DNA from: a virus
DNA: 57,373 bases
Reading direction: 5' to 3' (one strand)
Virus record (IMG/VR): IMGVR_UViG_3300031759_000022
Location: 1-57,373 of that record
Part shown: positions 268 to 51,891 of the stretch, piece by piece
How the letters are laid out: every line of letters begins with the position of its first letter
Numbering within the stretch: position 1 is the first letter of the stretch
Notes under the pieces: model-generated
What the model saw: only the letters and a program-made list of their open reading frames with translations
The model's database searches: none
Told to the model about the DNA's origin: nothing
Translations under genes and position numbers: made by a program

Positions 268-297
268 GGGCGGATTCCCGTACTTTATTGCATTAGT
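268..297 (+). promoter_or_regulatory. Phage promoter element, site 1 (portal)
   Basis: GGGCG (268-272), a 15-nt gap, then TTGCATTAGT (288-297), followed by GTATATAGGG. It is one of seven copies with exactly this spacing. It starts just after the terL stop codon and lies 38 bp before the portal start. Promoter function is inferred from recurrence, fixed spacing and position. Confidence 0.75.
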
Positions 298-335
298 GTA
301 TATAGGGAAGTCTATCCAACAAATTTATAGAGCTT

Positions 336-3221
336 ATGGCACAACCACAACTACCGATCCAAAATGGCAATACTTTGCCTAACCTCGACAGCCTTGAAGA
401 TATCCATGAAAAGGAGTCTCAAGATGACGCGATGGAGGACTACGCGGAAGAATTTGATTTAGACGACGATGAAGTTGAACAGGAGGTTATAGAACTTTCG
501 GACGGTTCCGTGGTAATCAACTTTCAAGAAAAACAAGGCCCAAAAAAGAATCCAAGTTTCTATGAGAACTTAGCCGAAGTGTTTGATGAACAGACACTTC
601 AATCTTTGGCTATTGAGTATTTGGATCTGATAGATGTCGACAAAGAAGCGCGCGAACAAAGAGATAAGCAGTATGAAGAAGGGCTTCGTCGCACAGGCCT
701 TGGTAAGGACGCCCCTGGTGGTGCTACTTTCGACGGTGCTTCTAAAGTTGTTCATCCCGTCATGGCCGAAGCTTGCGTTGACTTCGCCGCTTCCTCATCC
801 AAAGAGTTGCTCCCACCAGATGGGTTGGTTAAGTCCAACATCAAAGGAAACTCCGATCGAAAGAAAGAAGATACCGCCGATCGTAAAGTAACCTTTATGA
901 ACTGGCAGCTCACTGAGCAAATTCCAGAATACCGAGACGAGATGGAACAGCTGCTGACCCAGCTCCCACTCGGCGGTTCCCAATTCCTTAAATGGCGCTT
1001 TGACGAAGAGCAAAAGCGTCCAACCTGCGAATGGGTACCAATCGACGCAATTTTGCTGCCATATGCAGCATCAAACTTTTACACAGCCCAACGTGTAACC
1101 GAAGTACAAGACATTACAGAAGATACTTTCCTATTACGAGTTGAATCCGGTATCTACCGCGATATTGATTCAGAGTATTCTTCCGATGCACCATTAAACG
1201 ATCAAACTCGCAGCCAAGAAGCTAACGATAAAATCGAAGGTAAACAAAACCCGTCTAAAAACATCGACGGTTTGCGTCGTGTTTACGAAATTACTTGCTT
1301 TATGCGGTTAGATGATGATCCTGAAACTGAAGGTCGTCGCGCCCCATATATTTTAACTATTGACGAAACTAGCTCTGAAGTTATTTCGTTATACCGTAAC
1401 TGGGAATCCGGCGATGAAAAACTTGAGAAGCTTGATTGGTTCGTGGAGTTTAAATTCATTCCTTGGCGTGGTGCTTACGCCATCGGATTGCCTCATCTTA
1501 TTGGTGGCCTCGCCGCTGCTCTTACTGGTTCTCTTCGTGCTTTGCTTGACGCTGCTCATATCAACAACAGCCAGACGATGCTTAAGCTCAAAGGCGGACG
1601 AATTGGAGGTCAATCTGATCGAATCGAACCGACTCAAGTAGTAGAAATTGAAGGAGCTCCCGGTGTTGATGACGTTCGTAAGATCGCAATGCCAATGCCA
1701 TTTAACCCACCTTCATCAGTACTGTTTAGTTTACTTGGTTGGTTAACAGATGCGGCTAAAGGTGTAGTCACCACTTCTGAAGAAAAGATTGGCGAAGCAA
1801 ACAACAACATGCCTGTTGGCACAACCCAAGCTCTTATTGAGCAAGGTGCTAAGGTATTCTCCTCAATTCACTCCCGTTTACACCGCTCACAAGCTAAATC
1901 TTTAGCAATCATCTCACGTATCAATCATTGGTACTTGGATGAAATGGATAATCAGTCCGGTGAAGAGATTGAAGTACGCGACTTTGCTTACAACAACGAT
2001 GTACGTCCAGTTTCAGATCCTAACATTTTCTCTGAAACTCAGCGTCTTGCCCAGAACCAAGCCCTTTTACAAATGGCTACCTCTGCACCTCCAGGTATGT
2101 TTAACCTTCGTGCAGTGTATCAACGGATTTTGGCTCAGTTAAAGATCCCTGCAATTGGCGAAGTGTTACCTAATCCCGTTGGAGTAGTAGAATCTAACCC
2201 CGCATTAGAAAACGTCTCTATGACAATGGGGCAACCAGCTGCTGCTTTCCCCGATCAGGACCATATTGCGCACATTCAGGTTCATTTAGAATATGCAAAC
2301 AATCCAGCATATGGCGGAAACCCTGTAATTGGGCCTGCTTTTGCACCACATGCCTTAGAACATATCAAACAGCATTTAACTTTACACTATTTGCAAGAAA
2401 TGCGTGGCTATGTTGCTAAAGCAAGTGGTGGAAAAGACAAATTTGACCTGCATAAAGAAAAAGCTCTTGATGGTGATGCACAAAAAGCATTAGCTGTTGC
2501 TTCACGTATGGTAGATAACGACGCTAAAACCAATTTAGCACCGTACATGCAGCAAGTTCAAGCACTAGCACAGAAAGTTGCACAAGCACAACAGTCCCAA
2601 CAACAAGCTTCCATGATGTCAGACCCAACAGCTGCGGTTATTATGCAAACCCAGATGGCTGAAACCAAACGCAAGTCAGAAGAAGCTCAAGCTAACATGC
2701 AACTTGATAGTAAAAAGATGGAACAAGACTACCAAGTTAAAGTTGCAGAGCTTCAACAAAAAGTTCAAGAGCTTCAAGCTAAGTATCAGACGCAAACAAG
2801 TATTGATAACCAACGTAATGCAACAGATATTGCCATGGCTAACATCAATAATGCTGCAAAAGAGCGTGTTGCTATGATTGGCGCACAAACACAGATGAGC
2901 CAACAACAAATTGCGCTTGATTCTGAGCAAAATCAATCTGCAATGGAGGCTATCAACGCATCTAATTCAGATATTAGGCAACATGGCTTAGCTGTACAGC
3001 AACAAACTTTCCAACAACAAGCTGAACAAGTTAAAAATCAAATCGCAATGCAAAATGCTCAGCAACAACACGCACAAGAGCTGCAACAAAACGATCAACA
3101 GCACCAACAAGGCTTACAACAAGCCGATCAACAGCACCAACAAGCAATGGTACAAGCAGCGCAGCAACAAGCTGCACAACCAGAGCAAGCACAACCAACA
3201 ACCCCTACTGAAGGACAATAA
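336..3221 (+). CDS. Portal protein with long Gln-rich C-terminal extension
   Basis: This 961-residue protein lies directly after terminase and before scaffold and capsid, the usual place for the portal, the dodecameric ring that is the DNA channel and packaging docking site. Residues 1-90 are acidic. The central part (about 90-640) has a portal-like mix of helices with motifs such as VVHPVMAEACVDFAASSSKEL and SLLGWLTDAAKGVVTTSEE. From about residue 690 to the end it becomes a long Gln/Ala-rich helical region, in the manner of the P22 portal barrel but longer. The family assignment rests on context and overall character, not on a catalytic motif. It is preceded by promoter site 1 and its stop overlaps the next start (TAATG). 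Confidence 0.8.
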   Translation: MAQPQLPIQNGNTLPNLDSLEDIHEKESQDDAMEDYAEEFDLDDDEVEQEVIELSDGSVVINFQEKQGPKKNPSFYENLAEVFDEQTLQSLAIEYLDLIDVDKEAREQRDKQYEEGLRRTGLGKDAPGGATFDGASKVVHPVMAEACVDFAASSSKELLPPDGLVKSNIKGNSDRKKEDTADRKVTFMNWQLTEQIPEYRDEMEQLLTQLPLGGSQFLKWRFDEEQKRPTCEWVPIDAILLPYAASNFYTAQRVTEVQDITEDTFLLRVESGIYRDIDSEYSSDAPLNDQTRSQEANDKIEGKQNPSKNIDGLRRVYEITCFMRLDDDPETEGRRAPYILTIDETSSEVISLYRNWESGDEKLEKLDWFVEFKFIPWRGAYAIGLPHLIGGLAAALTGSLRALLDAAHINNSQTMLKLKGGRIGGQSDRIEPTQVVEIEGAPGVDDVRKIAMPMPFNPPSSVLFSLLGWLTDAAKGVVTTSEEKIGEANNNMPVGTTQALIEQGAKVFSSIHSRLHRSQAKSLAIISRINHWYLDEMDNQSGEEIEVRDFAYNNDVRPVSDPNIFSETQRLAQNQALLQMATSAPPGMFNLRAVYQRILAQLKIPAIGEVLPNPVGVVESNPALENVSMTMGQPAAAFPDQDHIAHIQVHLEYANNPAYGGNPVIGPAFAPHALEHIKQHLTLHYLQEMRGYVAKASGGKDKFDLHKEKALDGDAQKALAVASRMVDNDAKTNLAPYMQQVQALAQKVAQAQQSQQQASMMSDPTAAVIMQTQMAETKRKSEEAQANMQLDSKKMEQDYQVKVAELQQKVQELQAKYQTQTSIDNQRNATDIAMANINNAAKERVAMIGAQTQMSQQQIALDSEQNQSAMEAINASNSDIRQHGLAVQQQTFQQQAEQVKNQIAMQNAQQQHAQELQQNDQQHQQGLQQADQQHQQAMVQAAQQQAAQPEQAQPTTPTEGQ

Positions 3222-3445
3222 TGGCAACTAAAAAACAAGACGGTGGTGAATTAGGCTTCCGTAAAACATACAAAATGACAGGAACACCTGGTAATGCAGG
3301 CGGCCCTGGTGAAAAAACTATTGATGCAGGTAGTTCTGGCTCCAAGCGCGCTAACAATGCTGTACTTAACGGAAATAAAGTTAAGTCAAGCAAAGTTGGA
3401 CCAGATAAAAACTTAAAAGAAGTTAAAACTGGTAATTTCTATTAA
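3221..3445 (+). CDS. Small basic hypothetical protein
   Basis: A 74-residue Lys/Gly-rich protein whose start codon overlaps the portal stop (TAATG), so translation is probably coupled. The sequence is low complexity (GTPGNAGGPGEKTIDAGSSG) and probably mostly unstructured. Its position between portal and co-chaperonin suggests a head-assembly role, but no family was recognised. Promoter site 2 follows immediately. Confidence 0.6.
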   Translation: MATKKQDGGELGFRKTYKMTGTPGNAGGPGEKTIDAGSSGSKRANNAVLNGNKVKSSKVGPDKNLKEVKTGNFY

Positions 3446-3448
3446 TTA

Positions 3449-3478
3449 GGGCGGAATCTTTCATATTGTTGCATTAGT
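3449..3478 (+). promoter_or_regulatory. Phage promoter element, site 2 (scaffold/capsid operon)
   Basis: GGGCG (3449-3453), 15 nt, TTGCATTAGT (3469-3478). It lies between the 74-residue ORF and the head-assembly genes. The next start codon (3485) is only six bases downstream, so if TTGCATTAGT occupies the -10 position, transcription would begin at or near that ATG and the first message would be leaderless. Confidence 0.75.
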
Positions 3479-3484
3479 AAGAGT

Positions 3485-3673
3485 ATGAAAGACTTTTTGT
3501 CCACAATTATCTCTCGTACGAGAGATGAAAAACGTAAAACTGCAGAAACTGTTGCTGCAGGATACAACGTACACGACTTTAGTGATTACCAGCGTTTAGT
3601 TGGCCGTCACGAAGCGTTCCAAGTAGTATTAGATATTATTGATGAACTTTTAACAGAAGACGACGAATCGTAA
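3485..3673 (+). CDS. Small hypothetical protein, possibly from a leaderless message
   Basis: A 62-residue acidic, mainly helical protein (DYQRLVGRHEAFQVVLDIIDELLTEDD). It is the first gene after promoter site 2, with its ATG six bases past the TTGCATTAGT box and no in-frame alternative start upstream. No family was recognised. It is followed by the co-chaperonin gene 20 bp downstream, so it probably belongs to the head-assembly operon. Confidence 0.55.
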   Translation: MKDFLSTIISRTRDEKRKTAETVAAGYNVHDFSDYQRLVGRHEAFQVVLDIIDELLTEDDES

Positions 3674-3693
3674 GATTCAGAAAGGATTGCCGG

Positions 3694-4134
3694 ATGGCAA
3701 TTGATTTTAATGTGAAGGACGAACCAGATACACGCTCAGAGATTGAGTGTTTTCCTGATGTAGATCCTGGTGTAGAAATTCTTGGAGACAGAGTATTGGT
3801 GCAGTTACGCCGAGAAAAGCTCACAAGTAAAGGTGGTATTTTCCTTGTGGAAGAAACCAGACAAACGTTGAAGTTTAACGAGACAGTAGCTAAAGTACGT
3901 GATGTAGGACCCTTGGCATACAAGAGTCCTGATGACCTAACACCCTGGCCTGAAGGCAATTGGTGTAACGTTGGCGATTTAGTTCGCACTATCAAGTACG
4001 GCGGAGACCGTTTTGTTGTGAATGCAAACGATGATGGCGCACCCGTGGTATTTATTACACTTCAAGCGCGCGAAGTGATCTGTAAGATCAAATCATTTGA
4101 AGCAGCACAAAAAATGAAAGCGTTTGTAGATTAA
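3694..4134 (+). CDS. GroES-like co-chaperonin
   Basis: A 146-residue protein with a Cpn10-type fold signature at about residues 28-110: VEILGDRVLVQLRRE at the start, a mobile-loop-like stretch (KLTSKGGIFLVEET), then KVRDVGPLAY and VGDLVRTIKYGGDRFVV. Host GroES is about 97 residues; here there is an acidic N-terminal extension and a helical tail. Phage co-chaperonins such as T4 gp31 replace GroES so that GroEL can fold the capsid protein. Its place just before scaffold and capsid fits that role. An AGAAAGGA-type ribosome-binding site precedes the ATG. Confidence 0.75.
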   Translation: MAIDFNVKDEPDTRSEIECFPDVDPGVEILGDRVLVQLRREKLTSKGGIFLVEETRQTLKFNETVAKVRDVGPLAYKSPDDLTPWPEGNWCNVGDLVRTIKYGGDRFVVNANDDGAPVVFITLQAREVICKIKSFEAAQKMKAFVD

Positions 4135-4157
4135 CAAACTTTTGTAGAAAAGAAGAT

Positions 4158-5147: not shown

Positions 5148-5152
5148 TTAAA

Positions 5153-5737: not shown

Positions 5738-6400
5738 ATGTCTACGACATACCAACCCTTTGGTCTGAAGCCCGCTTACCATCCAAGTGGTCTAGATCGC
5801 GCAACTGCATTCGTTGGCACAAACAGCTTCCAAGCTGCTACTGACAATTCATACAACGCGCCTTATGGTCTCACAACTGGTCAGGCTTTTTACCAATATC
5901 AACCAGTCGGAATTAATTCCTCTGGTCAATTAGTTCCTGCTGCTACTGCAGCTGGCACAAGCCGCTTCTACGGTGTATTCGACGGTGTTGAATTCACAGA
6001 CTCACAAGGTCGTCGTTCTGTAGCTAAATGGGCTTCTAAGCTCGCTTTAGATGCTTCTACACAAATCGTATTCTGGATTTTTAGTGATCCAGCATTGGTT
6101 TACGAAGCACAAGTAAACGGTTCTGTATTACCTACAGCAATCGCACAAGAGTACAATTTTGACGCAACAAACAACCCAACCGTTGGCTATGCTATCGGTA
6201 ACGGTGGTGCTGGCTTTAGCTTAACAGCTCTAGCTGCTACTTCAGTAGCTTTAGGCGCACAAGGTCAGGTTAAAGTTGTTGGATTAGGACGTGAAGCAGC
6301 ATTCCCAGCGGGTCAAACCAATGCTTGGGGTGATACATTCACAATCGTTCAAGTTCAAGTCGCTAACAGCCAATTGGTCGCTCCGTCGATCTCGGTTTAA
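5738..6400 (+). CDS. Putative head decoration protein
   Basis: A 220-residue protein directly before the major capsid gene. It starts MSTTYQPFGLKPAYHPSG and consists mainly of predicted beta strands rich in Ala, Gly, Thr and Val, with no charged coiled coil or enzyme motif. Small beta-rich proteins encoded next to the capsid gene are often capsid decoration or cement proteins; that role is inferred from position and composition. The ribosome-binding site is AAAGGAAA before the ATG. Confidence 0.55.
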   Translation: MSTTYQPFGLKPAYHPSGLDRATAFVGTNSFQAATDNSYNAPYGLTTGQAFYQYQPVGINSSGQLVPAATAAGTSRFYGVFDGVEFTDSQGRRSVAKWASKLALDASTQIVFWIFSDPALVYEAQVNGSVLPTAIAQEYNFDATNNPTVGYAIGNGGAGFSLTALAATSVALGAQGQVKVVGLGREAAFPAGQTNAWGDTFTIVQVQVANSQLVAPSISV

Positions 6401-6423
6401 TTAAAAACGAAAGGTAATAAGCA

Positions 6424-7341
6424 ATGGCAACTCCAATGCGTAGTACGGACTTTCGTGCGGTAGTCGAACCGATTATCAACGAAGTCTTTGACGGTGTTTA
6501 CGAACAACGTTCCGACGAGTGGAAAGGATTTGTTGAACAAGTCCAAGGTATTCCACGTAACTACCACGAAGAAGTAATGCTTTATGGTATGAACGCAGCT
6601 CCTGCAATGCCTGATGGCACTCCAGTTACCTACGATCAAGGTGGTACATTGTACATCACCCGCTTCATCTACCAAATCTATGGCTTGGCTTATGCTTTGA
6701 CCAAAGTTTTGATGGAAGACGGCGATCACATCCGTATCGGCTCAACCTTCGCTAAGCATTTGGCTCAATCCATGATTGAAACCAAAGAAACTTTGTGCGC
6801 TAACTTGTTGAACTTCGCGTTTACAGCTGGTTACACTGGTGGTGATGGCGTAACTTTGATTAACACAGCCCACCCAATCGCCAATGGTGGTTCATACTCT
6901 AACCAGTTATCCACAGCTGCTTCTTTGAGCCAAACTTCTGTTGAACAGATGTTGATTCAAATCCGCTCCGCTGTAGACAACAACGGTAAGCGTATTCGCC
7001 TCAAGGCAGAGCAATTAGTAGTTCCACCAGCACTCGAGTTCCAATCAGAAGTAATTCTGAAATCGGTTCTCCGTTCTGGTACTGCTGATAACGATTTGAA
7101 CCCTATCAAATCAACAGGCATGTTGCCTAAAGGTACACACGTGGTTACACGTTTGTCCTCTAGCAAAGCTTGGTGGGTTCAGACTGATGCAGAAAATGGT
7201 CTCATGCTCGTAATGCGTCGTCCAATGGAAAAATCCATGGAGGGTGACTTTGAGACTGACTCCATGCGTTACAAGGCTACTGAGCGTTACGCAACCGGTT
7301 GGCACGATGGCCGTAACATTTTCGGTACAGCTGGTCTGTAA
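6424..7341 (+). CDS. Major capsid protein
   Basis: A 305-residue protein that is the best capsid candidate: it follows scaffold, ends the head operon and has its own strong terminator. Its features recall the Mu gpT-like branch of the HK97 fold: an N-terminal helix (FRAVVEPIINEVFDGVYE), a long helix near residues 110-135 (AKHLAQSMIETKETLCANLL), the segment LINTAHPIANGG, and a C-terminal TERYATGWHDGRNIFG strand region. It assembles the icosahedral shell. The fold assignment comes from remembered family patterns and could be tested by structure prediction. Confidence 0.8.
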   Translation: MATPMRSTDFRAVVEPIINEVFDGVYEQRSDEWKGFVEQVQGIPRNYHEEVMLYGMNAAPAMPDGTPVTYDQGGTLYITRFIYQIYGLAYALTKVLMEDGDHIRIGSTFAKHLAQSMIETKETLCANLLNFAFTAGYTGGDGVTLINTAHPIANGGSYSNQLSTAASLSQTSVEQMLIQIRSAVDNNGKRIRLKAEQLVVPPALEFQSEVILKSVLRSGTADNDLNPIKSTGMLPKGTHVVTRLSSSKAWWVQTDAENGLMLVMRRPMEKSMEGDFETDSMRYKATERYATGWHDGRNIFGTAGL

Positions 7342-7418: not shown

Positions 7419-7871
7419 ATGGCAAGAGATTTAGAAAACGCAAAAAAACTTAAAAAAGAATGGTATGAGCGTAATAAAACGCTTACTATTGAACGCGCAA
7501 TTAAGTGGCAAAAAGACAATATTGAAAGAAAACGTGAAATAAACACAAAATGGCGAGAAGAAAATAGAGAACAGCACAACGCCACAAATCGTAAATGGGA
7601 TGAAAGTAACAAACCCATCAAAGCAGCATTACAAGCTAAACGCAAATCAGCAATCCTTCAACACACCCCAGCTTGGGATCCACATGCACCCCTCATTATA
7701 GCAAAATATCAACTAGCCAATATGCTCTCTATAGCATCTGGCGAGCCATACCACGTAGACCACATTATCCCACTTCAAGGCCGTAAAGTATCCGGCTTGC
7801 ATGTCTTTTCAAACCTCAGAGTAATCCCCGGAGCAGAAAACTGCCAAAAATCAAACAAATACCCTGTTTAG
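7419..7871 (+). CDS. HNH homing endonuclease
   Basis: A free-standing HNH nuclease of 150 residues. The N-terminal half is a charged helix suited to DNA contact; the C-terminal part has the HNH core: YHVDHIIPLQGRKVSGLH, then NLRVIPGAENCQKSNK. The VDHI and GLHVFSNLRV segments supply the metal and DNA ligands. An in-frame ATG also exists at 7404, but it falls in the terminator tail; 7419 is preferred because of the TATAAT box. The gene sits in the gap between the capsid terminator and promoter site 3, and its stop codon overlaps that promoter (TAGGGCG), a neat insertion that does not disturb neighbours. Confidence 0.8.
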   Translation: MARDLENAKKLKKEWYERNKTLTIERAIKWQKDNIERKREINTKWREENREQHNATNRKWDESNKPIKAALQAKRKSAILQHTPAWDPHAPLIIAKYQLANMLSIASGEPYHVDHIIPLQGRKVSGLHVFSNLRVIPGAENCQKSNKYPV

Positions 7872-7900
7872 GGCGGAATGTCCTTATTTTTTGCATTAGT
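7871..7900 (+). promoter_or_regulatory. Phage promoter element, site 3 (virion/fibre operon)
   Basis: GGGCG (7871-7875), 15 nt, TTGCATTAGT (7891-7900), then AGTTATAGGA. The first G is the last base of the HNH stop codon. The next gene starts at 7995, leaving a leader of about 85 nt. Confidence 0.8.
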
Positions 7901-7994: not shown

Positions 7995-8447
7995 ATGTCA
8001 ACAACATTCACAGGCCCATTACGCATCAATAAGCGTAACAACCCAACAAACAACGGCGTAATCGCCCCTTCAAACACCGGTGCAGCTGAATGTACCGTTC
8101 AAAACGCAATCGTTGGCGGAACAGCAACTACTGTTGTAATCCCTGCTGGCTCTATTATTGCAAACGTCCGTGATTATATTACTACCGCAGCTGGTACACC
8201 TGCAGCAACAAATATTACCGTAGCAGGAACAGTTGTAGGCACATTAACTGATGCTGCAGGTGTTAATGCTATTACTTTTGCTTCTGGTGCAACAGCTGTT
8301 GGCCTATTAGCAAACGTAGGTACTAGCGATGTAACTATCAGCTACACAGCCGGTGCTTCTGCAGTTGGTACGTTTAGCGTAACTTACACACCACGTAATA
8401 CTGACGGAACAATTACTCCTATTGGTTCTGGATTCACTAACTCGTAA
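7995..8447 (+). CDS. Putative virion decoration or fibre-base protein
   Basis: A 150-residue protein, almost all Ala, Gly, Thr, Val and Asn, predicted to be beta-rich, with repeated strands such as NITVAGTVVGTLTDAAGV. There are no catalytic residues or coiled coils. It is the first gene after promoter site 3 and precedes other virion proteins, so a structural surface role is likely but not shown. The ribosome-binding site is AAGGAAT. Confidence 0.55.
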   Translation: MSTTFTGPLRINKRNNPTNNGVIAPSNTGAAECTVQNAIVGGTATTVVIPAGSIIANVRDYITTAAGTPAATNITVAGTVVGTLTDAAGVNAITFASGATAVGLLANVGTSDVTISYTAGASAVGTFSVTYTPRNTDGTITPIGSGFTNS

Positions 8448-19661: not shown

Positions 19662-20183
19662 ATGGGCAAAAGGCTATTTTTAGTAGCATGGTTATGCACG
19701 TTAATTTTAGTAGTACAAAACATACCCCTAATTCAAACAGTAGAAAACAAAACCATGGCAATTACAAAATCAACATTTAATTTTATAACTGGATTTGAAG
19801 GAAAACGCCATACCGCATATAAAGATTCTAAAGGTCTTTGGACAACTGGAGTAGGCCACTTAATAAAAGCCGACGAACAATATCTTTTACACAAGGTTTT
19901 AACAGACCAACAAGTAGAAGACCTATTTAAAGACGATTTAAGGTGGTGTGACGATGCCGTAGCAAGTTCTGTTAGGGTATCCCTCAACCAGAACCAATCA
20001 GACGCCCTGTACTCGCTATGCTTTAATATTGGGGAAGAACATTTTAAAAACTCTGAAGTTGTGCGTCATCTTAATGATAATGACCTTATAAAAGCAGCAA
20101 ATGCCTTTATGAATTGGGTTACCCCTACTGTATTGACTCCAAGACGGGAAAAAGAAAAAAAGCTGTTTTTAACACCAGTTTAG
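19662..20183 (+). CDS. SAR-type endolysin, GH24 lysozyme
   Basis: A 173-residue lysozyme with catalytic spacing E46-8-D55-5-T61 (FEGKRHTAYKDSKGLWTTGVGH), the T4/P1 lysozyme triad. The N-terminus (MGKRLFLVAWLCTLILVVQN) is a weak hydrophobic signal-anchor-release segment carrying Cys12; further Cys are at 96 and 120. In P1 Lyz a SAR cysteine reactivates the enzyme by disulfide exchange after release, and a similar control is possible here, though the residue between Glu and Thr is Asp, not Cys. It cuts peptidoglycan. The stop codon overlaps promoter site 4. Confidence 0.85.
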   Translation: MGKRLFLVAWLCTLILVVQNIPLIQTVENKTMAITKSTFNFITGFEGKRHTAYKDSKGLWTTGVGHLIKADEQYLLHKVLTDQQVEDLFKDDLRWCDDAVASSVRVSLNQNQSDALYSLCFNIGEEHFKNSEVVRHLNDNDLIKAANAFMNWVTPTVLTPRREKEKKLFLTPV

Positions 20184-20212
20184 GGCGTAAATCGTCCGTT
20201 TTTTGCATTAGT
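20183..20212 (+). promoter_or_regulatory. Phage promoter element, site 4 (neck/hub operon)
   Basis: GGGCG (20183-20187), 15 nt, TTGCATTAGT (20203-20212), then AGATATAAGG. The first G ends the endolysin stop codon. It lies 47 bp before the next ATG, which has GAGGAAA. Confidence 0.8.
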
Positions 20213-20259: not shown

Positions 20260-20784
20260 ATGGACGGATTTAAAAAGATTGTAAAGATGAAAATTGGCGG
20301 CGCTGTTAAGCCAGCTGCATATGTAACTCGCAAAGAGCTCAAACAAGAAGAATCTAAAGACATATCTGCTGATAAGCAGATGGTCAAAAAAGGTGTTAGC
20401 CAGCATGAGAGTTTTCTGCACAAAGGCGAACCAGCAACAGAACTTACCCTTAAAAAAGGCGGCCGAGCTAAAAAAGCTGTTGGTACAGTAAGTAAGTATA
20501 AATGTGGTGGCGGCATTAAAAAGATGGCTGTTGGCGGATCTGCGCTACAAGACCTAATGCAAGCTAAAGAAATCGCTCGTTTAGCTAATGCTAAAAAATA
20601 TTTAGGTAAAGGCCAACAAGGTCAATTTGCTGGTCAAGAAATGCAACAAACTCCAGCACAAACTGGTTTGCCTGTTGCCCCAGCAATGGCTCCTAATACT
20701 CCACCTGCACCAATGCCAGCTCCAGTACCAGGTAGCGCACCCCCAATGAAAAAAGGCGGTAAAGCTAAAAAAGACAAGTGCTAA
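20260..20784 (+). CDS. Lys/Gly-rich hypothetical protein
   Basis: A 174-residue basic protein with several KKGG/KMxxGG units ([34 protein letters not shown]) and an Ala/Pro-rich linker near residue 130-160. The repeated Lys-Gly motifs suggest a flexible, nucleic-acid-binding or virion-internal protein. No family was recognised. It heads the operon of site 4. Confidence 0.5.
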
Positions 20785-26892: not shown

Positions 26893-26922
26893 GGGCGTTT
26901 TTGCCTTATTTTTTGCATTAGT
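26893..26922 (+). promoter_or_regulatory. Phage promoter element, site 5 (ejection-protein operon)
   Basis: GGGCG (26893-26897), 15 nt, TTGCATTAGT (26913-26922), then GTATATAGAA. It lies five bases after a stop codon and 28 bp before the ejection-protein start. Confidence 0.8.
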
Positions 26923-39309: not shown

Positions 39310-39825
39310 TTATACTGCGAAATCATCAGCTGCTGAAGAACCACCACCTAATTTATCAGCATCAGCTAACTTTTGTAGGTTGTTTAAACCACACGCAATA
39401 CCTTTAGAACCGGCGGCATTGTATGGGTAAAATGTTACAGATGCACGACCATAACAACCACTATAGAACTCGTTTTGGTCAAACAACTCTTCACGATTTG
39501 CATCTACAACTTGAGGCTTTTGTGCGCTGTTGGCGTTGATAAAATAATGACCTGCATAAGCTGCATCATCACGCTCTTCATCACCATCACGCAAACCGCC
39601 TTTTAAACCTTTTGGTACTGAGCCGCCAAAGAACGCTGCGTTAGTTGTCTTAGCATCTTCAAAGGCTTTTTTAATCTTTGCAACACCTTCAACATCGGAC
39701 TTAGGGATAAGAATAGAAACTGAATACTTTGGTTCGCCACCATTCATACCAGCTTTTGGCTGAAATACATTAGCGTATGAAAAACGAACTTTACCTGTTA
39801 CGATTTTAACTTTGTTGGATTGCAT
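39310..39825 (-). CDS. ssDNA-binding protein (DUF2815 / Enc34-like)
   Basis: A 171-residue protein matching the phage DUF2815 group: VKIVTGKVRFSYANVFQPKA, YSVSILIPKSDVEGVAKIKKA, GYACGRASV-like strand (FYSGCYGRASVTFYPY) and a final acidic tail (SSAADDFAV). Members form an OB-fold that coats single-stranded DNA, and the acidic tail recruits partners, as in bacterial SSB. It has its own host-type promoter and terminator, suggesting high independent expression. Confidence 0.75.
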   Translation of the reverse strand: MQSNKVKIVTGKVRFSYANVFQPKAGMNGGEPKYSVSILIPKSDVEGVAKIKKAFEDAKTTNAAFFGGSVPKGLKGGLRDGDEERDDAAYAGHYFINANSAQKPQVVDANREELFDQNEFYSGCYGRASVTFYPYNAAGSKGIACGLNNLQKLADADKLGGGSSAADDFAV

Positions 39826-39888
39826 TTTATTTCCTATTTACATTAGAACTGGACTTCAATAGGGGCCAGTTCGTCTACCCTTAACGCT

Positions 39889-40305: not shown

Positions 40306-40337
40306 GCGTTCATGCGTTCATGCGTTAATGCGTTCAT
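40298..40337 (-). repeat. Five tandem copies of an 8-bp unit across a start codon
   Basis: The plus-strand unit GCGTTCAT occurs five times in a row, the fourth with one mismatch (GCGTTAAT). On the coding (minus) strand each exact copy reads ATGAACGC. It joins the stop codon of the Cas4-like gene to the start codon of the membrane micro-protein. Confidence 0.95.
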
Positions 40338-41482
40338 GCAAAGTCCTCCTTAGCAGCTTGTTTAACACGTACCAGTTTTGGTGCTCCGTCTGGACGTAAA
40401 ACTAAATCACCCAACCATGCCGCTGCTTGCTTGTTAATCTTTTCCAATGATGCGATAGATTTAAGTGTTGGCTGATTCCAAATCTGTTCCGCTGGCATAC
40501 CCTTTTCAATAAGCACTGTTGCCGCTAATTGGTTATCTGATATCTTGCGGTGAGTCTTTGTAACTGACAGCTTAAAGCCTGTAGGAATAACATTACAGGT
40601 TATGGCCTGTTCTAGTGCGTACTCTTCTACATCATTTGCCCATGTTCTTAAATCTTGGGCTTTGGCAAGGACTTCAATAATTTCGTCTTGGCTGAGGAGG
40701 GCTGGCTCTTGGAAGTCTTGCTTGGCAAGCTCTGTGTTGAAGTCGCTGCGGGAGCGGCACGTCGCTTTGGCACGGCAGAACTGGCACCACTCTCCGGGGA
40801 GGAAGTCACCCGAGCCGGACCACGCTTTCTTGGCTTTGGGTTTGACAAAATAGTTCGCCCAGTCGACAAGTTTATGTATGCTTGTTCCGTCGGTACTGAT
40901 TGAGTCGAGTCTAGGTTGGTGAATGGTATAGCTAACTTCTTTAATGTTTGGGAACTCTTCTTTGAACTTGGCGTATGCCCCGAGTGCGTAAAGTCTGAGT
41001 TGAGGATTGTCTTCTGCGTAAACTGGAATTCCTTTTCCAAATTTAAGGTCGATAACGCGAATGGAGTGTTCAGAAAGAATAACCACATCGGCCGTACCAA
41101 AGCCATCAGGAACCCATTCAGAGAAGTCCACACGCTGTTCAAAAAGCGGTGTGTCTCCTTCACCAATTTGAGAGCGGACGTAAAGAACGTAGTTGTCAAC
41201 GTGGGCTTCAAAGTCCTCTCTTTCAGCTTCTTCATAGTTTTGATAGATCGGGTGCGTTTTAATGATTTCATATTCTCGGTCATATTCATCGTGTCCTATT
41301 TGATTAAACTGCAAACGCAAGCGTACTTCACCTAGCGAATGGGCAAGAGTGCCTTCCGCAGAGAAATCAATCCCTTTGGTATTTCTTTTTTGTTCTGGAA
41401 GGGTGGATTCTAAACGAGCACTTGGTGTGCAAGATAGCCATCTTTTGGCTCCCGATGCACTTAACATGGCGTGGGCTGTCAA
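40334..41482 (-). CDS. Cas4-like PD-(D/E)XK nuclease (DUF2800)
   Basis: A 382-residue protein of the DUF2800 type. LSASGAKRWLSCTPSARLE opens it; EGTLAHSLGE, then FGTADVVILSEHSIRVIDLKFGKG give the nuclease core (Asp in GTAD, Asp-x-Lys in DLK), and CQFCRAKATCRS carries cysteines for an iron-sulfur cluster together with upstream Cys18. It probably resects DNA ends in recombination or processing. The start is TTG at 41482; an in-frame ATG at 41467 is an alternative. It follows promoter variant site 8. Confidence 0.75.
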   Translation of the reverse strand: MTAHAMLSASGAKRWLSCTPSARLESTLPEQKRNTKGIDFSAEGTLAHSLGEVRLRLQFNQIGHDEYDREYEIIKTHPIYQNYEEAEREDFEAHVDNYVLYVRSQIGEGDTPLFEQRVDFSEWVPDGFGTADVVILSEHSIRVIDLKFGKGIPVYAEDNPQLRLYALGAYAKFKEEFPNIKEVSYTIHQPRLDSISTDGTSIHKLVDWANYFVKPKAKKAWSGSGDFLPGEWCQFCRAKATCRSRSDFNTELAKQDFQEPALLSQDEIIEVLAKAQDLRTWANDVEEYALEQAITCNVIPTGFKLSVTKTHRKISDNQLAATVLIEKGMPAEQIWNQPTLKSIASLEKINKQAAAWLGDLVLRPDGAPKLVRVKQAAKEDFA

Positions 41483-41516
41483 TTTATTCTTTCAATTCGT
41501 TTTAAGAAGTATACAT

Positions 41517-41548
41517 ACTAATGCAAAAAAAGGGGCTAGTCAAGCCCC
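41517..41548 (-). promoter_or_regulatory. Variant phage promoter element, site 8 (Cas4-like gene)
   Basis: On the minus strand TTGCATTAGT (41526-41517), followed by ATGTATAC. The GGGCG box is replaced by GGGGC two bases further away (17-nt gap), and that GGGGC is part of the terminator stem. The terminator T tract runs straight into the box. Confidence 0.55.
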
Positions 41549-41551
41549 TTT
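41529..41551 (-). terminator. Bidirectional terminator between terminase small subunit and nuclease genes
   Basis: AGGGGCT and AGCCCCT pair around AGTCA, with A tract on one side and T tract on the other, so it can stop transcription in both directions. On the minus strand it ends the terminase small subunit transcript while leaving the TTGCATTAGT box just downstream. Confidence 0.8.
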
Positions 41552-41572
41552 TTAACGAATTTAAAAAAATAT

Positions 41573-41962
41573 TTATTTTAGGGCGGCAAGCAAATCTGCA
41601 ATCTCTTTATTGAAATCTACTTTTATTTCTACTTTAGCATCAATTTTAGTATCGCGGGTTTCGCGGTAATCTTGTTGAAATTGACCTCTGAGTGCTATTT
41701 CAGCGAGGCGGCTGTTGTAGCCTTTGTTTTCGATGTTTGCTAGAAGCTCACGCTCCCAGTGTGCCTGTGAGTGAACCAATGCCATATCCAGTGAATCGGC
41801 AAACTCTGGATGGTTCTTTTTGAATGTATCTGCTGCGGATTTTGAAATACCTAGATCGGACCAAATCATTTTTTGAGACGCACCTTGACGCCCTAGTTCA
41901 ATCATACGATCGCACATTTCCGGCTTAAATACGTATTTTTGAGTTGATTTTTTGGTTGCCAT
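41573..41962 (-). CDS. terS: Putative terminase small subunit
   Basis: A 129-residue helical protein. Residues 10-55 form a helix-turn-helix (CDRMIELGRQGASQKMIWSD, GISKSAADTFKKNHP), then a central helix (DSLDMALVHSQAHWERELLAN) for oligomer contacts and a beta/charged C-terminus (KIDAKVEIKVDF). This is the layout of terminase small subunits, which recognise phage DNA for packaging. It lies on the opposite strand and more than 15 kb from terL on either path, but under a late-type promoter (site 7), which fits a packaging role. Confidence 0.6.
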   Translation of the reverse strand: MATKKSTQKYVFKPEMCDRMIELGRQGASQKMIWSDLGISKSAADTFKKNHPEFADSLDMALVHSQAHWERELLANIENKGYNSRLAEIALRGQFQQDYRETRDTKIDAKVEIKVDFNKEIADLLAALK

Positions 41963-42081
41963 ATAATTCCTTTATTGATGGGGGCCGTCTTTCCGGCTGC
42001 CAGGAGTCCAGTCACCTCTCGCTTACTGGTAATGGCGTTTTAAGCCATTATACGGAGCCTTTCACAAGGAGTCCTATATCT
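41963..42081 (-). promoter_or_regulatory. Structured leader of the terminase small subunit message
   Basis: About 110 nt between promoter site 7 and the ATG, with no gene. It contains a perfect 7-bp hairpin (TAATGGC, 7-nt loop, GCCATTA; 42030-42050) and two related GGACTCCT boxes. The ribosome-binding site AAAGGAA is near the ATG. A regulatory role is possible but not shown. Confidence 0.4.
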
Positions 42082-42111
42082 ACTAATGCAAAAAACCAAC
42101 CAAAACCGCCC
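42082..42111 (-). promoter_or_regulatory. Phage promoter element, site 7 (terminase small subunit)
   Basis: On the minus strand GGGCG (42111-42107), 15 nt, TTGCATTAGT (42091-42082), then AGATATAGGA. It follows the stop codon of the upstream gene without a gap (TAAGGGCG). Confidence 0.8.
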
Positions 42112-42351
42112 TTAATCCGGAATGATAATATTGCGTACAGGCTTTTCTTTAGCTTTTTGTTCGTCCTCAATCATTTTTCTAAAAGTTGGCATCATTTCAT
42201 TAACAATGCCTTTAGTCATAGCTTCTGCTAAAAGGCGGTGCTCCATTTCCTGTTCTGCTGTTGTCTTTTTAGTTTTTTCATCGACGTTGTCCGCAATTTT
42301 GGTACCAAATTTACGATGTTTTAAAAACTGACGGATAAAGTTATCATCCAT
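42112..42351 (-). CDS. Small charged hypothetical protein
   Basis: A 79-residue, highly charged helical protein (KIADNVDEKTKKTTAEQEME, then MMPTFRKMIEDEQKAKEK). It overlaps the upstream gene by 8 bases. No family was recognised. Confidence 0.55.
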   Translation of the reverse strand: MDDNFIRQFLKHRKFGTKIADNVDEKTKKTTAEQEMEHRLLAEAMTKGIVNEMMPTFRKMIEDEQKAKEKPVRNIIIPD

Positions 42352-42535
42352 TCTTAGCTGTTTCCTTTTCTAGCATAGCTTTAAATTGTGGCTCTCCTTG
42401 TTGGCGAATTAATGCAATTAAACCAGCTGAACTTTTATAAGGACGCTCGCCTAATTCTTGTAAAATTGCGTTAATAAATTCAACGGTAAAAGAGAAGTTT
42501 AAAATCTCTTTTTTTAGTTTATCTTCCGGACTCAT
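42344..42535 (-). CDS. Small hypothetical protein
   Basis: A 63-residue protein predicted to be helical (FSFTVEFINAILQELGERP, LIALIRQQGEPQFKAMLEKE). It is linked by overlap to both neighbours (ATGA at the upstream side). No family was recognised. Confidence 0.55.
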   Translation of the reverse strand: MSPEDKLKKEILNFSFTVEFINAILQELGERPYKSSAGLIALIRQQGEPQFKAMLEKETAKNG

Positions 42536-42819
42536 TTTTTCTTACCTTTCTTTTTAACTGGGAAATTAAATTGATCTCTTGCTGCTAATTCTTCTGGATC
42601 AACACAATACTGGTTTAGCTCCATTTTTTGGCAATATACATCCATTAAATTCTCACATCGCATATCATGAAGTGTTTTAATACCCAGTAACACATTCATA
42701 ACTTCATCCTCGGTCATAGGTCTTGGTGCGTCACTGTAATGTCGAAATAGCAAATCAATATCTTCAACTATCTGCCACACCACCATGATGGCGCTTTCTA
42801 AGTCAATCTTTGGATTCAT
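42532..42819 (-). CDS. Small hypothetical protein
   Basis: A 95-residue helical protein with acidic N-terminus (AIMVVWQIVEDIDLLFRHY) and a basic end (FPVKKKGKKK). It overlaps the upstream gene by 17 bases and the downstream gene by four. No family was recognised. Confidence 0.55.
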   Translation of the reverse strand: MNPKIDLESAIMVVWQIVEDIDLLFRHYSDAPRPMTEDEVMNVLLGIKTLHDMRCENLMDVYCQKMELNQYCVDPEELAARDQFNFPVKKKGKKK

Positions 42820-43341: not shown

Positions 43342-43507
43342 GTTTGCCTCTTAGTTCAGTTTCAACTGCTAAAATTTCTTCCGGTGTATCGCACACCCAC
43401 AATGTTTGAACGTCTTTAAACATGGAAAGATCAATATCTTCCACACCTTGTATAGTATCAAATAGCGGGTAACCTTTTACTAAATGCTCAACAATAAATG
43501 TAGTCAT
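43322..43507 (-). CDS. Small hypothetical protein
   Basis: A 61-residue acidic protein with alternating strands and helices (TFIVEHLVKGYPLFDTI, VQTLWVCDTPEEILAVETEL). Overlaps both neighbours (20 bases with DUF3310, ATGA upstream). No family was recognised. Confidence 0.55.
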   Translation of the reverse strand: MTTFIVEHLVKGYPLFDTIQGVEDIDLSMFKDVQTLWVCDTPEEILAVETELRGKHARSSK

Positions 43508-43809
43508 AGCTTGAGTTCCTTTTTAATAAACGCAACACCGGCAGCAAAATGATACCGCCAATGCTTTTCTGTTAAACCGATATCATTATAACTTAAACCT
43601 TGTAAAAAAGCATCTAAAACTTTTTTTGATTTTTCTGGCATTTTTGTGCAAATTAAACGGCGTATATCCGCCACGTCTTCTACATCCCACGGTAGCCAAC
43701 CACCTCCCTCTAACATGCTTGATGAAATACCTTCTGATTCATCTTGCTCGATTACGTCCATTTCCTCGTCTGATAGGCGGGGAGCTACTGCTTGAATTTT
43801 TGATGTCAT
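43504..43809 (-). CDS. Protein with sigma region 4-like helix-turn-helix
   Basis: A 101-residue protein. Residues 1-45 are acidic. Residues 57-101 follow the pattern of sigma-70 region 4: MPEKSKKVLDAFLQGLSYND (the LPxxxxxVL and GLSYxE elements), then LTEKHWRYHFAAGVAFIKKE (recognition helix and tail). The turn between the two helices is about three residues shorter than usual. Since the phage sigma protein lacks region 4, this could be its separate partner, or simply a small HTH regulator. It is linked by ATGA to the SNF2 helicase gene. Confidence 0.5.
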   Translation of the reverse strand: MTSKIQAVAPRLSDEEMDVIEQDESEGISSSMLEGGGWLPWDVEDVADIRRLICTKMPEKSKKVLDAFLQGLSYNDIGLTEKHWRYHFAAGVAFIKKELKL

Positions 43810-46688: not shown

Positions 46689-46696
46689 GTTATTCC

Positions 46697-48247: not shown

Positions 48248-48474
48248 TAGTTTTTGTCCTTTACTTGGTGCCATTTAACAAAATCTACTGCATCCCAAAA
48301 GCCGTTCTCGTACTCCTCAGAGTTGATGCCTGTCATGGTGATGTCTTGGTACCAAACAATCATCTTCTCTAGGTGGGTAAGTCGGTCCTGCATCTTCTTT
48401 AGCTCATCACACGGCACACCTACCACGTTGTTAGGTCTTTTAGCTGCGTCTATGCCAAATTGTTCTTTGCTCAT
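48247..48474 (-). CDS. Small hypothetical protein
   Basis: A 75-residue charged protein with a central helix (DELKKMQDRLTHLEKMIVWY) and a C-terminal ENGFWDAVDFVKWHQV unit. Linked by ATGA to the upstream gene. No family was recognised. Confidence 0.55.
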   Translation of the reverse strand: MSKEQFGIDAAKRPNNVVGVPCDELKKMQDRLTHLEKMIVWYQDITMTGINSEEYENGFWDAVDFVKWHQVKDKN

Positions 48475-48884
48475 TCTGCGTCCTCTATCACAATGCCGTT
48501 ATCACGGCGGTAAATTTCCTCATCAGCAAACACCTTGGCTATGTGCTCGGGTACGTGGGTCTGCGTCATGCGGATGTTGTGGATGTGCATGTTAGACAGC
48601 GAGCACACTGGGCGGTATTCCAGTGGTGATCTGCCGTCCTTGCCACGACAGCCCCACCAAAATGCTTTTCTAATTACCTCATGCGGGTCTATGTCATACA
48701 CACTGGCCTGTGTGTACGGCGCGTCATCGTGTATGTTGCAACGTTGGTAATCAAGGCCACCATCAATCATGTACTCCTTACCATTAGCGTCAACGTACGT
48801 CTTATAATCGTGCCGGTGAAAAGACTGCATCAATGTACCGTCTGGTGTGATGATGCGGTTGGCTAATAGTTTTGGTTCGGTCAT
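48471..48884 (-). CDS. Conserved-looking phage hypothetical protein
   Basis: A 137-residue protein (LLANRIITPDGTLMQSFHRH, DVDGGLDYQR-like segment MIDGGLDYQRCNIHDD, RKAFWWGCRGKDGRSPLEY). The pattern is familiar from many phages and has no assigned function. The start overlaps the upstream gene (ATGA). Confidence 0.6.
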   Translation of the reverse strand: MTEPKLLANRIITPDGTLMQSFHRHDYKTYVDANGKEYMIDGGLDYQRCNIHDDAPYTQASVYDIDPHEVIRKAFWWGCRGKDGRSPLEYRPVCSLSNMHIHNIRMTQTHVPEHIAKVFADEEIYRRDNGIVIEDAE

Positions 48885-49018
48885 TTTGTTTTCTCACAGT
48901 TGTATATGACGGTGCAAATATTGTTTTGACAAATAATTTCCTTGGTGCAAGTTTGAGTTTGCGCAAAGGCGGTGATTGGGCTAAATGCCAGTAAAAATAA
49001 CCAAATAATACACTCCAT
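48881..49018 (-). CDS. Small secreted Cys-containing protein
   Basis: A 45-residue product with a signal peptide (CIIWLFLLAFSPITAFAQ, cleavage after AFA) and a 26-residue mature part with four Cys (TCTKEIICQNNICTVIYNCE). The mature part aligns with the lipoprotein at 46980-47105 (VICDQTECVTLYEY). The start has GGAGATAAGT. Exported, so probably acts in the periplasm. Confidence 0.6.
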   Translation of the reverse strand: MECIIWLFLLAFSPITAFAQTQTCTKEIICQNNICTVIYNCEKTK

Positions 49019-49020
49019 AC

Positions 49021-49233
49021 TTATCTCCTAAATGGTGTGGCTGGTGCGCGTCTGCCGTACAACCGACGAACCTTTATGGCTGTAATTCTGCCAAAGGTAA
49101 TATTTCGCCAGCCTTGGTGCGCGCGTCTTGTTCGTTGTAGCTTAAAGCGTTTTTTCTTAAACTTAGGTATGTAACTACGCACACCTCTGCGCCGACCAAC
49201 ACCACCAAAAATGGTGGTGAAGTCGTTACGCAT
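49021..49233 (-). CDS. Highly basic small protein
   Basis: A 70-residue Arg/Lys-rich protein (GVGRRRGVRSYIPKFKKKRF, KLQRTRRAHQGWRNITFGRI). ATG at 49266 is an alternative start, inside the helicase gene end. The charge suggests nucleic-acid or ribosome binding. No family was recognised. Confidence 0.5.
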   Translation of the reverse strand: MRNDFTTIFGGVGRRRGVRSYIPKFKKKRFKLQRTRRAHQGWRNITFGRITAIKVRRLYGRRAPATPFRR

Positions 49234-49249
49234 TATTGTCTTTCTAAAG

Positions 49250-51580: not shown

Positions 51581-51600
51581 TAAGATTCCTTTCTTATTTC

Positions 51601-51615
51601 CGCTATTGTATAGCG
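51601..51615 (-). promoter_or_regulatory. Host-type promoter and palindrome before the PrimPol gene
   Basis: CGCTAT-TGT-ATAGCG is a perfect palindrome. On the minus strand it contains TATACAAT (51612-51605) as a likely -10, 25 bp before the start. Outer arms ATTTCCG/CGGAAAT flank it. It could be an operator for control of replication protein synthesis. The -35 is weak. Confidence 0.5.
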
Positions 51616-51685
51616 AAACAGCCGGAAATACTAAATAACTTTTAGTTATATTGAAATTCCTTATGATACCAAAAAGTTATGGATT

Positions 51686-51842
51686 GACAGGGTAGCGGGG
51701 GTCTATCTCACTTTATTCTTTTTTAAAAAAAAAAAAAAAAAAAAAATATAATAAGAAAAGGTAAATATACCCTGTATTTCACGACTACCCTGTCTATTTT
51801 TGTGGATAACCTGTGGATAACCTGTGGATAACCTGTGGATAA
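51686..51842. other. Probable replication origin
   Basis: No gene lies here. In order: GACAGGGTAG (51686-51695), a very AT-rich tract with 22 consecutive A (51725-51746), TACCCTGT (51768-51775), CTACCCTGTC (51785-51794, the exact inverse of the first 10-mer) and four perfect DnaA boxes 11 bp apart (51801-51842). An AT-rich unwinding tract beside in-phase DnaA boxes is the layout of bacterial-type origins. The PrimPol-helicase gene starts about 100 bp away. Confidence 0.75.
51801..51842 (+). repeat. Four tandem DnaA boxes
   Basis: TGTGGATAA (inverse of TTATCCACA) occurs at 51801, 51812, 51823 and 51834, an 11-bp period that puts all boxes on one face of the helix. All four are exact matches to the consensus. 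Confidence 0.9.
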
Positions 51843-51861
51843 CTTTTATTGCACCATTCTT

Positions 51862-51891
51862 GGGCGTTTTGCGATAAAATTTTGCATTAGT
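51862..51891 (+). promoter_or_regulatory. Phage promoter element, site 6 (faces the early genes)
   Basis: GGGCG (51862-51866), 15 nt, TTGCATTAGT (51882-51891), then AGTTACCTAG. It is on the plus strand beside the origin, and its box covers the stop codon of the minus-strand gene 51887-52108. No plus-strand gene follows in the window, so any transcript would be antisense to the sigma-containing operon or serve the origin. Confidence 0.65.

What the first reader, a model, noticed from the sequence alone, without database searches (positions are those of the whole stretch)
268..51891. A new-looking phage promoter: GGGCG-N15-TTGCATTAGT, seven identical-spacing copies
Sites at 268, 3449, 7871, 20183, 26893 and 51862 (plus strand) and 42111 (minus strand) share both boxes and exactly 15 bases between them; the intervening sequence differs. 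A weak RKWTATAGGA tail follows most copies. Six of seven lie directly upstream of operons for head, tail, ejection or packaging proteins, and the first box usually touches or overlaps the stop codon of the gene before. TTGCATTAGT does not match the host TATAAT. This looks like a dedicated late-promoter class.
Basis: partly seen in the sequence, partly recalled or inferred. Interest (0 to 1): 0.92.

Follow-up and report, generated by a model that had tools for sequence, protein, structure and literature searches.

The report
Phage late promoters with two-part sigma
A group of uncultivated viruses of bacteria appears to switch on its structural genes with a shared two-box DNA signal, probably read by two small virus proteins that act together as one split transcription factor, a variant of a trick known from phage T4.

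Summary
The seven sites exist as described and exceed chance. They recur at the same gene boundaries in many related phage contigs. They read as a sigma70-type promoter: -35 GGGCG, 17-bp spacer, extended -10 TTGCATTAGT. (1) The window encodes a truncated sigma factor: regions 1.2-2-3, no region 4 (52600-53175, minus). (2) A separate 101-aa protein has relatives that weakly match sigma region 4 (43504-43809, minus). (3) The -10 box is not late-specific: without GGGCG it precedes replication genes. GGGC accompanies 209 of 212 box-bearing regions before six operon-first late genes and 0 of 183 before five middle genes; a lysozyme-like gene is an exception (box only, 7 of 7). The box differs between clades; the sigma columns that best track its variable base lie at the -7 pocket, but independent switches are too few to test. 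Two relatives sharing portal and head-gene order lack sigma, small protein and motif. Best reading: truncated sigma alone fires middle promoters; adding the region-4-like subunit fires late ones. Binding and transcript starts are untested.

The parts
268..297 (+). late promoter before portal (-35 GGGCG 268-272, -10 box 288-297)
   Evidence: exact match; orthologous sites before portal in 60 of 112 distinct upstream regions
3449..3478 (+). late promoter before 62-aa ORF (3485-3673) and GroES/capsid genes; ATG follows the box by 6 nt (leaderless candidate)
   Evidence: GGGC-bearing box before this ORF in 80 of 85 upstream regions, median distance 6 nt
7871..7900 (+). late promoter before the operon at 7995
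   Evidence: 28 of 28 upstream regions
20183..20212 (+). late promoter before the operon at 20260
   Evidence: 28 of 28 upstream regions
26893..26922 (+). late promoter before the 998-aa protein at 26951
   Evidence: 2 of 2 upstream regions
42082..42111 (-). late promoter before structured leader RNA and terS
   Evidence: 11 of 79 terS upstream regions within 170 nt (longer leaders are missed)
51862..51891 (+). late-type site on the strand opposite to the sigma operon; no sense gene downstream; not seen in other relatives
41517..41526 (-). middle-type promoter: -10 box without GGGCG, before exonuclease 40334-41482
   Evidence: box in 58 of 72 exonuclease upstream regions, none with GGGC
52600..53175 (-). 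truncated sigma70-family factor, 191 aa, regions 1.2 (weak), 2 and 3, no region 4
43504..43809 (-). 101-aa sigma-region-4-like protein, candidate -35 subunit
41963..42078 (-). structured leader of the terS transcript (GNRA hairpin at 5' end; pseudoknot form in relatives)
3485..3673 (+). 62-aa ORF (MKDF...), ATG 6 nt after the -10 box

Best explanation
The motif is the late promoter of a phage group that uses host core RNA polymerase with a phage-encoded two-piece sigma. GGGCG is the -35 element, CATTAG(T) with its TTG extension is the -10 element, and the spacer is 17 bp. The 191-aa sigma (regions 1.2-2-3) reads the -10 box and opens DNA. By itself it serves middle promoters, which have only the -10 box and precede exonuclease, primase, SSB and, in a good part of the relatives, the region-4-like gene. 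The 101-aa region-4-like protein then supplies the missing -35-reading domain, so that GGGCG-bearing late promoters fire. Shown: motif, conservation, two classes, both genes, absence of motif in two relatives without both genes. Inferred: that the sigma reads the box (likely), that the small protein reads GGGCG (less certain), and the temporal order.
For: Geometry: GGGCGK-17 bp-CATTAG is canonical sigma70 spacing; a search for TTGCATTAGT alone found GGGCG recurring at the one spacing in relatives; T and A at the expected start are 98-99% constant. A truncated sigma is encoded: PF04542 and PF04539 above cut-off, phrog_351 E 1e-25, SigA E 3e-23; it ends before region 4. A sigma relative is in 26 of 43 contig records, the small protein in 18 of 43, both in 17 (records are fragments). 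Small protein: Pfam Sigma70_r4_2 in 7 of 16 members, best E 2.1e-4; AF2 model residues 42-101 align to sigma region-4 chains (SigR r4 Z 7.2, rmsd 1.9; SigE r4 on -35 DNA Z 6.9). Two classes: GGGC in 209 of 212 box-bearing regions before six operon-first late genes and 0 of 183 before five middle genes; internal late genes 4158, MCP and 20955 have 0 boxes in 70, 39 and 27 regions. The box is concerted within loci (late-late 55 of 57 pairs equal, late-middle 26 of 30) and differs between contigs. The five sigma columns most informative on the -7 base (98, 92, 91, 94, 54 of 191) align near E. coli K426/S428/T429 and N383/L386, named as -7 pocket or fulcrum in PMC7566282 and PMC4496690 (passages). 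Natural swap: before SSB, relatives carry either the phage box or a TATAAT at about the same distance from a fixed RNA anchor. Negative controls: the whole records of MW202545 and Caulobacter phage RW have no late motif, no NTG[CT]ATTA[GAT]T box, no sigma and no small protein.
Against: No expression or binding data. The small protein's likeness to region 4 is weak: the window's own copy has no Pfam match, a genome search gave one sub-cut-off match in 10 records, PDB sequence searches found nothing, Foldseek's best E is 0.7 and Z is under 8, which may be only a common arrangement; some non-sigma helix-turn-helix chains score 6.4-6.5. GGGCG hardly varies, so it cannot be tested by covariation with the small protein. 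The gene-function rule has an exception: the lysozyme-like 19662-type gene has box-only sites (7 of 7). Sigma/box covariation rests on few independent changes (about 5; 2 independent pairs, not testable); the next columns (182, 189) lie outside the pocket; and there are exceptions (L181 has T98 with mixed boxes; L211 and L213 mix CATTATT and CATTAAT). 14 of 82 sigma loci show no late-type site in the DNA held. In the window only the exonuclease has a middle box; SSB, primase and the small-protein gene do not. 52 of 112 portal regions lack a late site within 170 nt. A looser pattern finds one TGGTATTAGT in MW202545.
Confidence: 0.7

Rival explanations
1. The truncated sigma reads the -10 box, but GGGCG is read by some other factor (an unrelated phage activator, or host alpha-CTD or region 4), and the 101-aa protein does something else.
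For: Weak sequence and fold match of the small protein to region 4; another small protein next to sigma (52302-52616) is also conserved (18 locus matches).
Against: No better -35-reading candidate was seen, though not every ORF was scanned; GGGCG lies where region 4 binds in sigma70 promoters; the small protein is widespread in the group (486 stretches) and absent at E<=1 from 50,697 named phage records.
Confidence: 0.22
2. A single-subunit (T7-type) phage RNA polymerase reads TTGCATTAGT-N3-TATAGG, with GGGCG unrelated.
For: The TATAGGA start looks like T7-type starts (recalled).
Against: No match to PF00940 in 10 records, though the control did not ring so absence is not shown; no RNA polymerase among the 30 window ORFs scanned against PHROGs; bipartite form with free spacer; natural swap with TATAAT at SSB.
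Confidence: 0.03
3. The sites are conserved operon-boundary elements of another kind (processing, termination, packaging or recombination sites), not promoters.
For: Some GGGCG boxes touch stop codons; one box follows a terminator hairpin.
Against: Strand-specific (antisense control 0-7 per gene), fixed distance to ATG at the MKDF gene, constant TA at the expected start, sigma gene in the same group, no motif in two relatives without sigma.
Confidence: 0.05

Closest known systems
T4 late transcription: gp55 + gp33 split sigma (PMC2988020, PMC7892883; passages seen)
   Same: Host core with a phage sigma lacking region 4, plus a separate small protein in the region-4 role; late genes.
   Different: gp33 has no discernible sequence similarity to sigma and reads no DNA sequence; T4 late promoters lack a -35 element and use the sliding clamp. 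Here the late class has GGGCG and the small protein has weak region-4 similarity. T4 middle promoters use MotA and AsiA (PMC6024815, abstract start in the listing), not the late sigma.
phiEco32 gp36/gp79 and phage 7-11 gp47 (PMC8948821, PMC4331800; passages seen)
   Same: Phage sigma for middle and/or late genes. phiEco32: sigma without region 4, single-element promoters, extra activator gp79. 7-11: sigma with region 4, bipartite GTAAtg-(16)-aCTA.
   Different: Here both promoter forms coexist in one genome, and the region-4 part seems to be a separate gene; boxes differ.
Bacillus subtilis SigO-RsoA two-subunit sigma (PMC10141391; table row seen)
   Same: Sigma domains divided between two proteins, both needed for a -35/-10 promoter (latter point recalled).
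   Different: Bacterial stress factor; no promoter class served by one subunit alone is known to me; homology not tested.
SPO1 gp28 and gp34 sigma cascade (PMC9429907, passages seen; gp33 partner and boxes recalled)
   Same: Phage sigma cascade with middle and late genes.
   Different: SPO1 swaps specificity factors with different boxes (recalled); here the -10 box is shared and a -35 is added.

Membership tests
sigma70-family factor (ORF 52600-53175) | region 2 (core binding, -10 reading) | tested here: met
   PF04542 25.7 bits over cut-off 24; aligned to SigA
sigma70-family factor (ORF 52600-53175) | region 3 | tested here: met
   PF04539 30.5 bits over cut-off 25.3
sigma70-family factor (ORF 52600-53175) | region 1.2 | tested here: inconclusive
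   PF00140 20.7 bits under cut-off 22
sigma70-family factor (ORF 52600-53175) | region 4 in the same protein | tested here: not met
   all 22 sequences aligned end in an acidic tail after region 3; no region-4 Pfam hit in the window protein
sigma region 4 (ORF 43504-43809) | sequence match to region-4 models | tested here: inconclusive
   7 of 16 members match PF08281 at E<=1, best 2.1e-4; window member none; no match over cut-off in 10 records
sigma region 4 (ORF 43504-43809) | region-4 helix-turn-helix fold | tested here: inconclusive
   model residues 42-101 align best to region-4 chains, Z up to 7.2, but under 8; Foldseek E 0.7 at best
sigma region 4 (ORF 43504-43809) | binds -35 DNA and beta flap | not testable with these tools
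   needs protein
sigma70-type promoter | two boxes with about 17-bp spacer | tested here: met
   7 exact sites; GGGCG at the same spacing in relatives found by the -10 box alone
sigma70-type promoter | constant A at -11 | not tested
   A is fixed by the search patterns, so its constancy there says nothing
sigma70-type promoter | T at -7 | tested here: not met
   G in 84% of 191 late sites, A or T in the rest (C excluded by the pattern)
T4-type split sigma | separate genes for -10 factor and region-4-site protein | tested here: inconclusive
   two separate ORFs about 9 kb apart; relatives of both in 17 of 43 records; role of the second is inferred
T4-type split sigma | late promoters without -35 element | tested here: not met
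   GGGC in 209 of 212 box-bearing regions before six operon-first late genes
T4-type split sigma | sliding-clamp dependence | not tested
   no clamp search made
T7-type RNA polymerase promoter | single-subunit RNA polymerase gene | tested here: inconclusive
   0 of 10 records, control also silent

The most novel reading that the evidence does not exclude
A modular sigma in which one subunit (regions 1.2-3) fires -10-only middle promoters, and later addition of a second, sequence-reading region-4 subunit converts the same holoenzyme to a -35/-10 late class, so that temporal switching is done by adding a domain in trans rather than by swapping sigmas. The box and the sigma's -7 pocket have diverged together across a large uncultivated phage group, giving a natural record of sigma-promoter coevolution.
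Probability: 0.55. Interest if true: 0.86.

Novelty: new variant of a known kind. Interest (0 to 1): 0.78.

Why it matters
T4 taught that sigma can be split, but its gp33 piece reads no DNA. A split sigma whose second piece reads a -35 box, with and without which two promoter classes of one genome work, would show how a multi-domain sigma can be assembled stepwise as a timer. The clades with G, A or T at -7 and altered extended -10 make a ready natural series for testing how region 2.3/2.4/3.0 residues set -10 specificity. It also gives a promoter-finding key for a widespread phage group of unknown hosts and, as a pair of small proteins with a long and specific promoter, a possible orthogonal expression tool.

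Tried and rejected
T7-type polymerase: not favoured, see rivals. The site-centred table holds 915 distinct sites, 476 of them not assigned to a reference gene (171 with GGGC, 301 without, 4 shifted); its 19 portal, 17 helicase and most GroES, 5153, 24448 and 26951 'none' sites look like internal coding matches, but the 7 before the lysozyme-like gene look real. The gene-anchored count tests a region of 170 nt before and 30 nt inside the gene; GGGC counts if any box of the region has it; the box tallies use the last box. It keeps a few off-pattern boxes (such as AAGCATTATT) in the middle counts. Its 212 leave out GroES (10 of 78 regions with off-pattern boxes, no GGGC; 209 of 222 with it); its 183 leave out helicase (8 of 78, no GGGC) and reductase (0 of 44). 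A first idea of a split TerL was dropped: neither ORF of the G014 pair has a Pfam match. PDB sequence searches with the small protein and its profile gave nothing useful. A paper search for TTGCATTAGT found 14 papers; the 10 listed are on other subjects by title, 4 were not seen. Searches for phage sigma with metagenome and promoter terms (12 of 17 listed) and for split sigma with phage terms (10 of 14 listed) showed no such system in the listings.
Full report
OBSERVATION. The seven sites are exact and far above chance (backward control 0). Besides them the window holds one more TTGCATTAGT, 41526-41517 minus, without GGGCG. The window is a 57,373-base linear IMG/VR virus record with portal, capsid, DNA polymerase, ribonucleotide reductase, exonuclease, gp2.5-like SSB and primase genes.

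CONSERVATION. Relatives were fetched by sigma (15 loci; 80 of 199 kept), portal (80 of 188 kept) and small protein (80 of 486 kept). Searching the loci for TTGCATTAGT alone shows GGGCG at the same spacing at the same boundaries in many of them, while spacer letters vary; a set of portal loci has none, and there a changed box stands at the place in many, though some have nothing recognisable before portal. Gene-anchored on distinct upstream regions, boxes with GGGC occur before the 20260-type gene in 28 of 28, 7995-type 28 of 28, MKDF 80 of 85, portal 60 of 112, terS 11 of 79 and 26951-type 2 of 2. Internal late genes have none (4158 0 of 70, MCP 0 of 39, 20955 0 of 27). GroES has 10 of 78 off-pattern boxes, none with GGGC. 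Antisense controls give 0 to 7 per gene.

TWO CLASSES. The same box without GGGCG precedes exonuclease (58 of 72), primase (51 of 73), SSB (23 of 52), the small protein (41 of 96) and DNA polymerase (10 of 30); none of these 183 has GGGC at the late spacing (a site-centred count gives 0 of 51, 56, 19, 34 and 9). A few of these boxes are off-pattern (for example AAGCATTATT) and may be chance. Ribonucleotide reductase has 0 of 44; helicase has 8 of 78 that look like coding matches. The sigma gene has 7 of 75, off-pattern, and two other early genes 2 of 15 and 0 of 15. An exception to the rule by function: the lysozyme-like 19662-type gene (named by eye from its sequence) has seven box-only sites and none with GGGC. 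So GGGCG marks head, tail and packaging operons, the box is common to middle and late, and the sigma gene itself is outside both.

ANATOMY. With C of the box as -12, the late sites read GGGCG at -35 to -31, CATTAG at -12 to -7 with 17 bp between GGGCGK and it, an extended TTG, and T at -6. In the logo of 191 sites GGGC, ATTA and the last T are fixed by the search pattern; what is found, not imposed, is G after GGGC (99%), the two T of TTG (83%, 92%; the G is fixed), and T and A seven and eight bases after the hexamer's last base (98%, 99%). At the MKDF gene the ATG lies 6 nt after the box (median), which suggests a leaderless message (inference). Before SSB, whose leader in the window holds the Rfam DUF2815 RNA, 20 of 48 distinct regions were scored as phage box and 11 as TATAAT-like upstream of a fixed GTAGAC anchor; 16 had no anchor and 1 was neither. 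Several of the 11 and at least one of the 20 (L285) are loose matches. By my reading of the printed rows the clear TATAAT cases end 8-9 bases and the phage hexamers 9 or 13 bases before GGGTAGAC. This natural exchange supports that the box is a -10 element.

READERS OF THE MOTIF. ORF 52600-53175 (minus) is a sigma70-family factor with regions 2 and 3 and a weak region 1.2; it stops after region 3. The AF2 model has mean pLDDT 77. ORF 43504-43809 (minus) has an acidic conserved N-terminal part and a C-terminal half in which E81, K82, W84, R85, Y86, H87 and F88 are invariant in 16 of 16 aligned sequences. Seven of 16 members match Sigma70_r4_2 at E<=1, best 2.1e-4. Residues 42-101 of its model (pLDDT about 85) align best with sigma region-4 structures, at Z below the level that would prove it. 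Foldseek alone gives no significant E-value.

SWITCHES OF THE BOX. Counting 10-mers behind GGGC, contigs use TTGCATTAGT, TTGCATTAAT (G024, G025, G032), TTGCATTATT (G041, G043), TTGTATTATT (G034), ACGTATTAGT (G030) or GCGTATTAGT (G036); several short contigs have no recurring one. Within loci, late-late pairs agree in 55 of 57 and late-middle pairs in 26 of 30. Over 59 distinct sigmas with an assigned box (12 of 71 unassigned and left out), the columns most informative on the -7 base are 98, 92, 91, 94 and 54: T98 in 45 of 45 G-type sigmas, G or A in 10 of 10 T-type, mixed in 4 A-type; the next columns, 182 and 189, lie elsewhere. By the alignment to SigA the five lie beside the residues named for the -7 pocket in E. 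coli (K426, S428, N383, L386: PMC7566282, passage; T429 as fulcrum: PMC4496690, passages). If the pocket is taken as 17 of 191 columns, five of five top columns falling there has chance about 3e-6, but the 17 were chosen after the fact. The clade with [AG]CGTATTAGT has E at 109 and K-x-R at region 3.0. On a tree built without these columns the -7 base needs 5 changes and gives only 2 independent pairs, so this is consistent in place but not proof by number.

CONTROLS. MW202545 (Manatee Spring, 57 kb) and Caulobacter phage RW (62 kb) have portal at 54% and 52% identity and GroES and capsid-region genes in like order; over their whole records there is no late motif, no NTG[CT]ATTA[GAT]T box and no match to the sigma or small-protein profiles, while the window scores 8e-105 and 3e-50. 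A looser pattern found one TGGTATTAGT in MW202545. The small protein has no match at E<=1 among 50,697 named phage records. The one genome hit is a contig in an uncultured betaproteobacterial MAG, a hint at hosts, no more.

LITERATURE. T4 gp55/gp33 is called a split sigma, gp33 reading no sequence (PMC2988020, passages; PMC7892883, passages). phiEco32 gp36 lacks region 4 and uses single-element promoters with activator gp79, while 7-11 gp47 has region 4 and a bipartite consensus (PMC8948821, passages). The present system looks like both forms in one genome, with the region-4 part in trans. SigO-RsoA is a bacterial two-protein sigma (PMC10141391, table row).

VERDICT. The likely reader is a two-piece phage sigma; the -10 half of that claim is strong, the -35 half is a good but weaker inference.

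Noticed in passing
window 52535-57327, and 24-44 copies per contig in G001, G012, G014, G019, G037: Palindrome GTTTAAAC: 17 copies in the window against a shuffled mean of 2.25 (0 of 100 reach 17), 12 of them from 52535 on, a few hundred bases apart; some relatives have few or none, and G043 has another repeat, TGTCACCCT. Looks like an operator or stoperator array over the early region.
   Followed up: partly
window 41963-42078 (minus); L111, L120, L200, L270, L278, L285, L289, L297, L298, L300, L320: The leader behind the terS late promoter is a structured RNA starting at the predicted transcript start: a GUGA-loop hairpin with changing stems and, in 11 of 11 relatives of one type, an H-type pseudoknot with compensatory changes. 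The window's leader alone folds with z -1.18 only. No Rfam family at gathering level in the window there, none convincing in L300.
   Followed up: partly
window 51862-51891 (plus): Late-type site facing the sigma operon, antisense; among the loci only L008 shares it (for context). Could silence sigma late.
   Followed up: partly
window 52302-52616 (minus): 104-aa protein next to the sigma gene, 18 matches in held loci, no Pfam or PHROG match; possible partner.
   Followed up: no
G004 66707-68027, G014 52378-53629, G032 5740-7126, G043 41404-42745: Behind a box upstream of portal, a short ORF (about 101 aa from the ATG after the box) and a 314-330-aa ORF overlap by 38 nt in all four contigs; no Pfam match in the G014 pair. 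Purpose unknown.
   Followed up: partly
L315, L319, L322, L357, L377, L110, L404 (before the 19662-type gene): Box-only sites 15-27 nt before a lysozyme-like gene in seven relatives, unlike the other late genes.
   Followed up: no
window 39823-39881 (minus): Rfam RF03084 DUF2815 RNA before the SSB gene, 70.8 bits.
   Followed up: no
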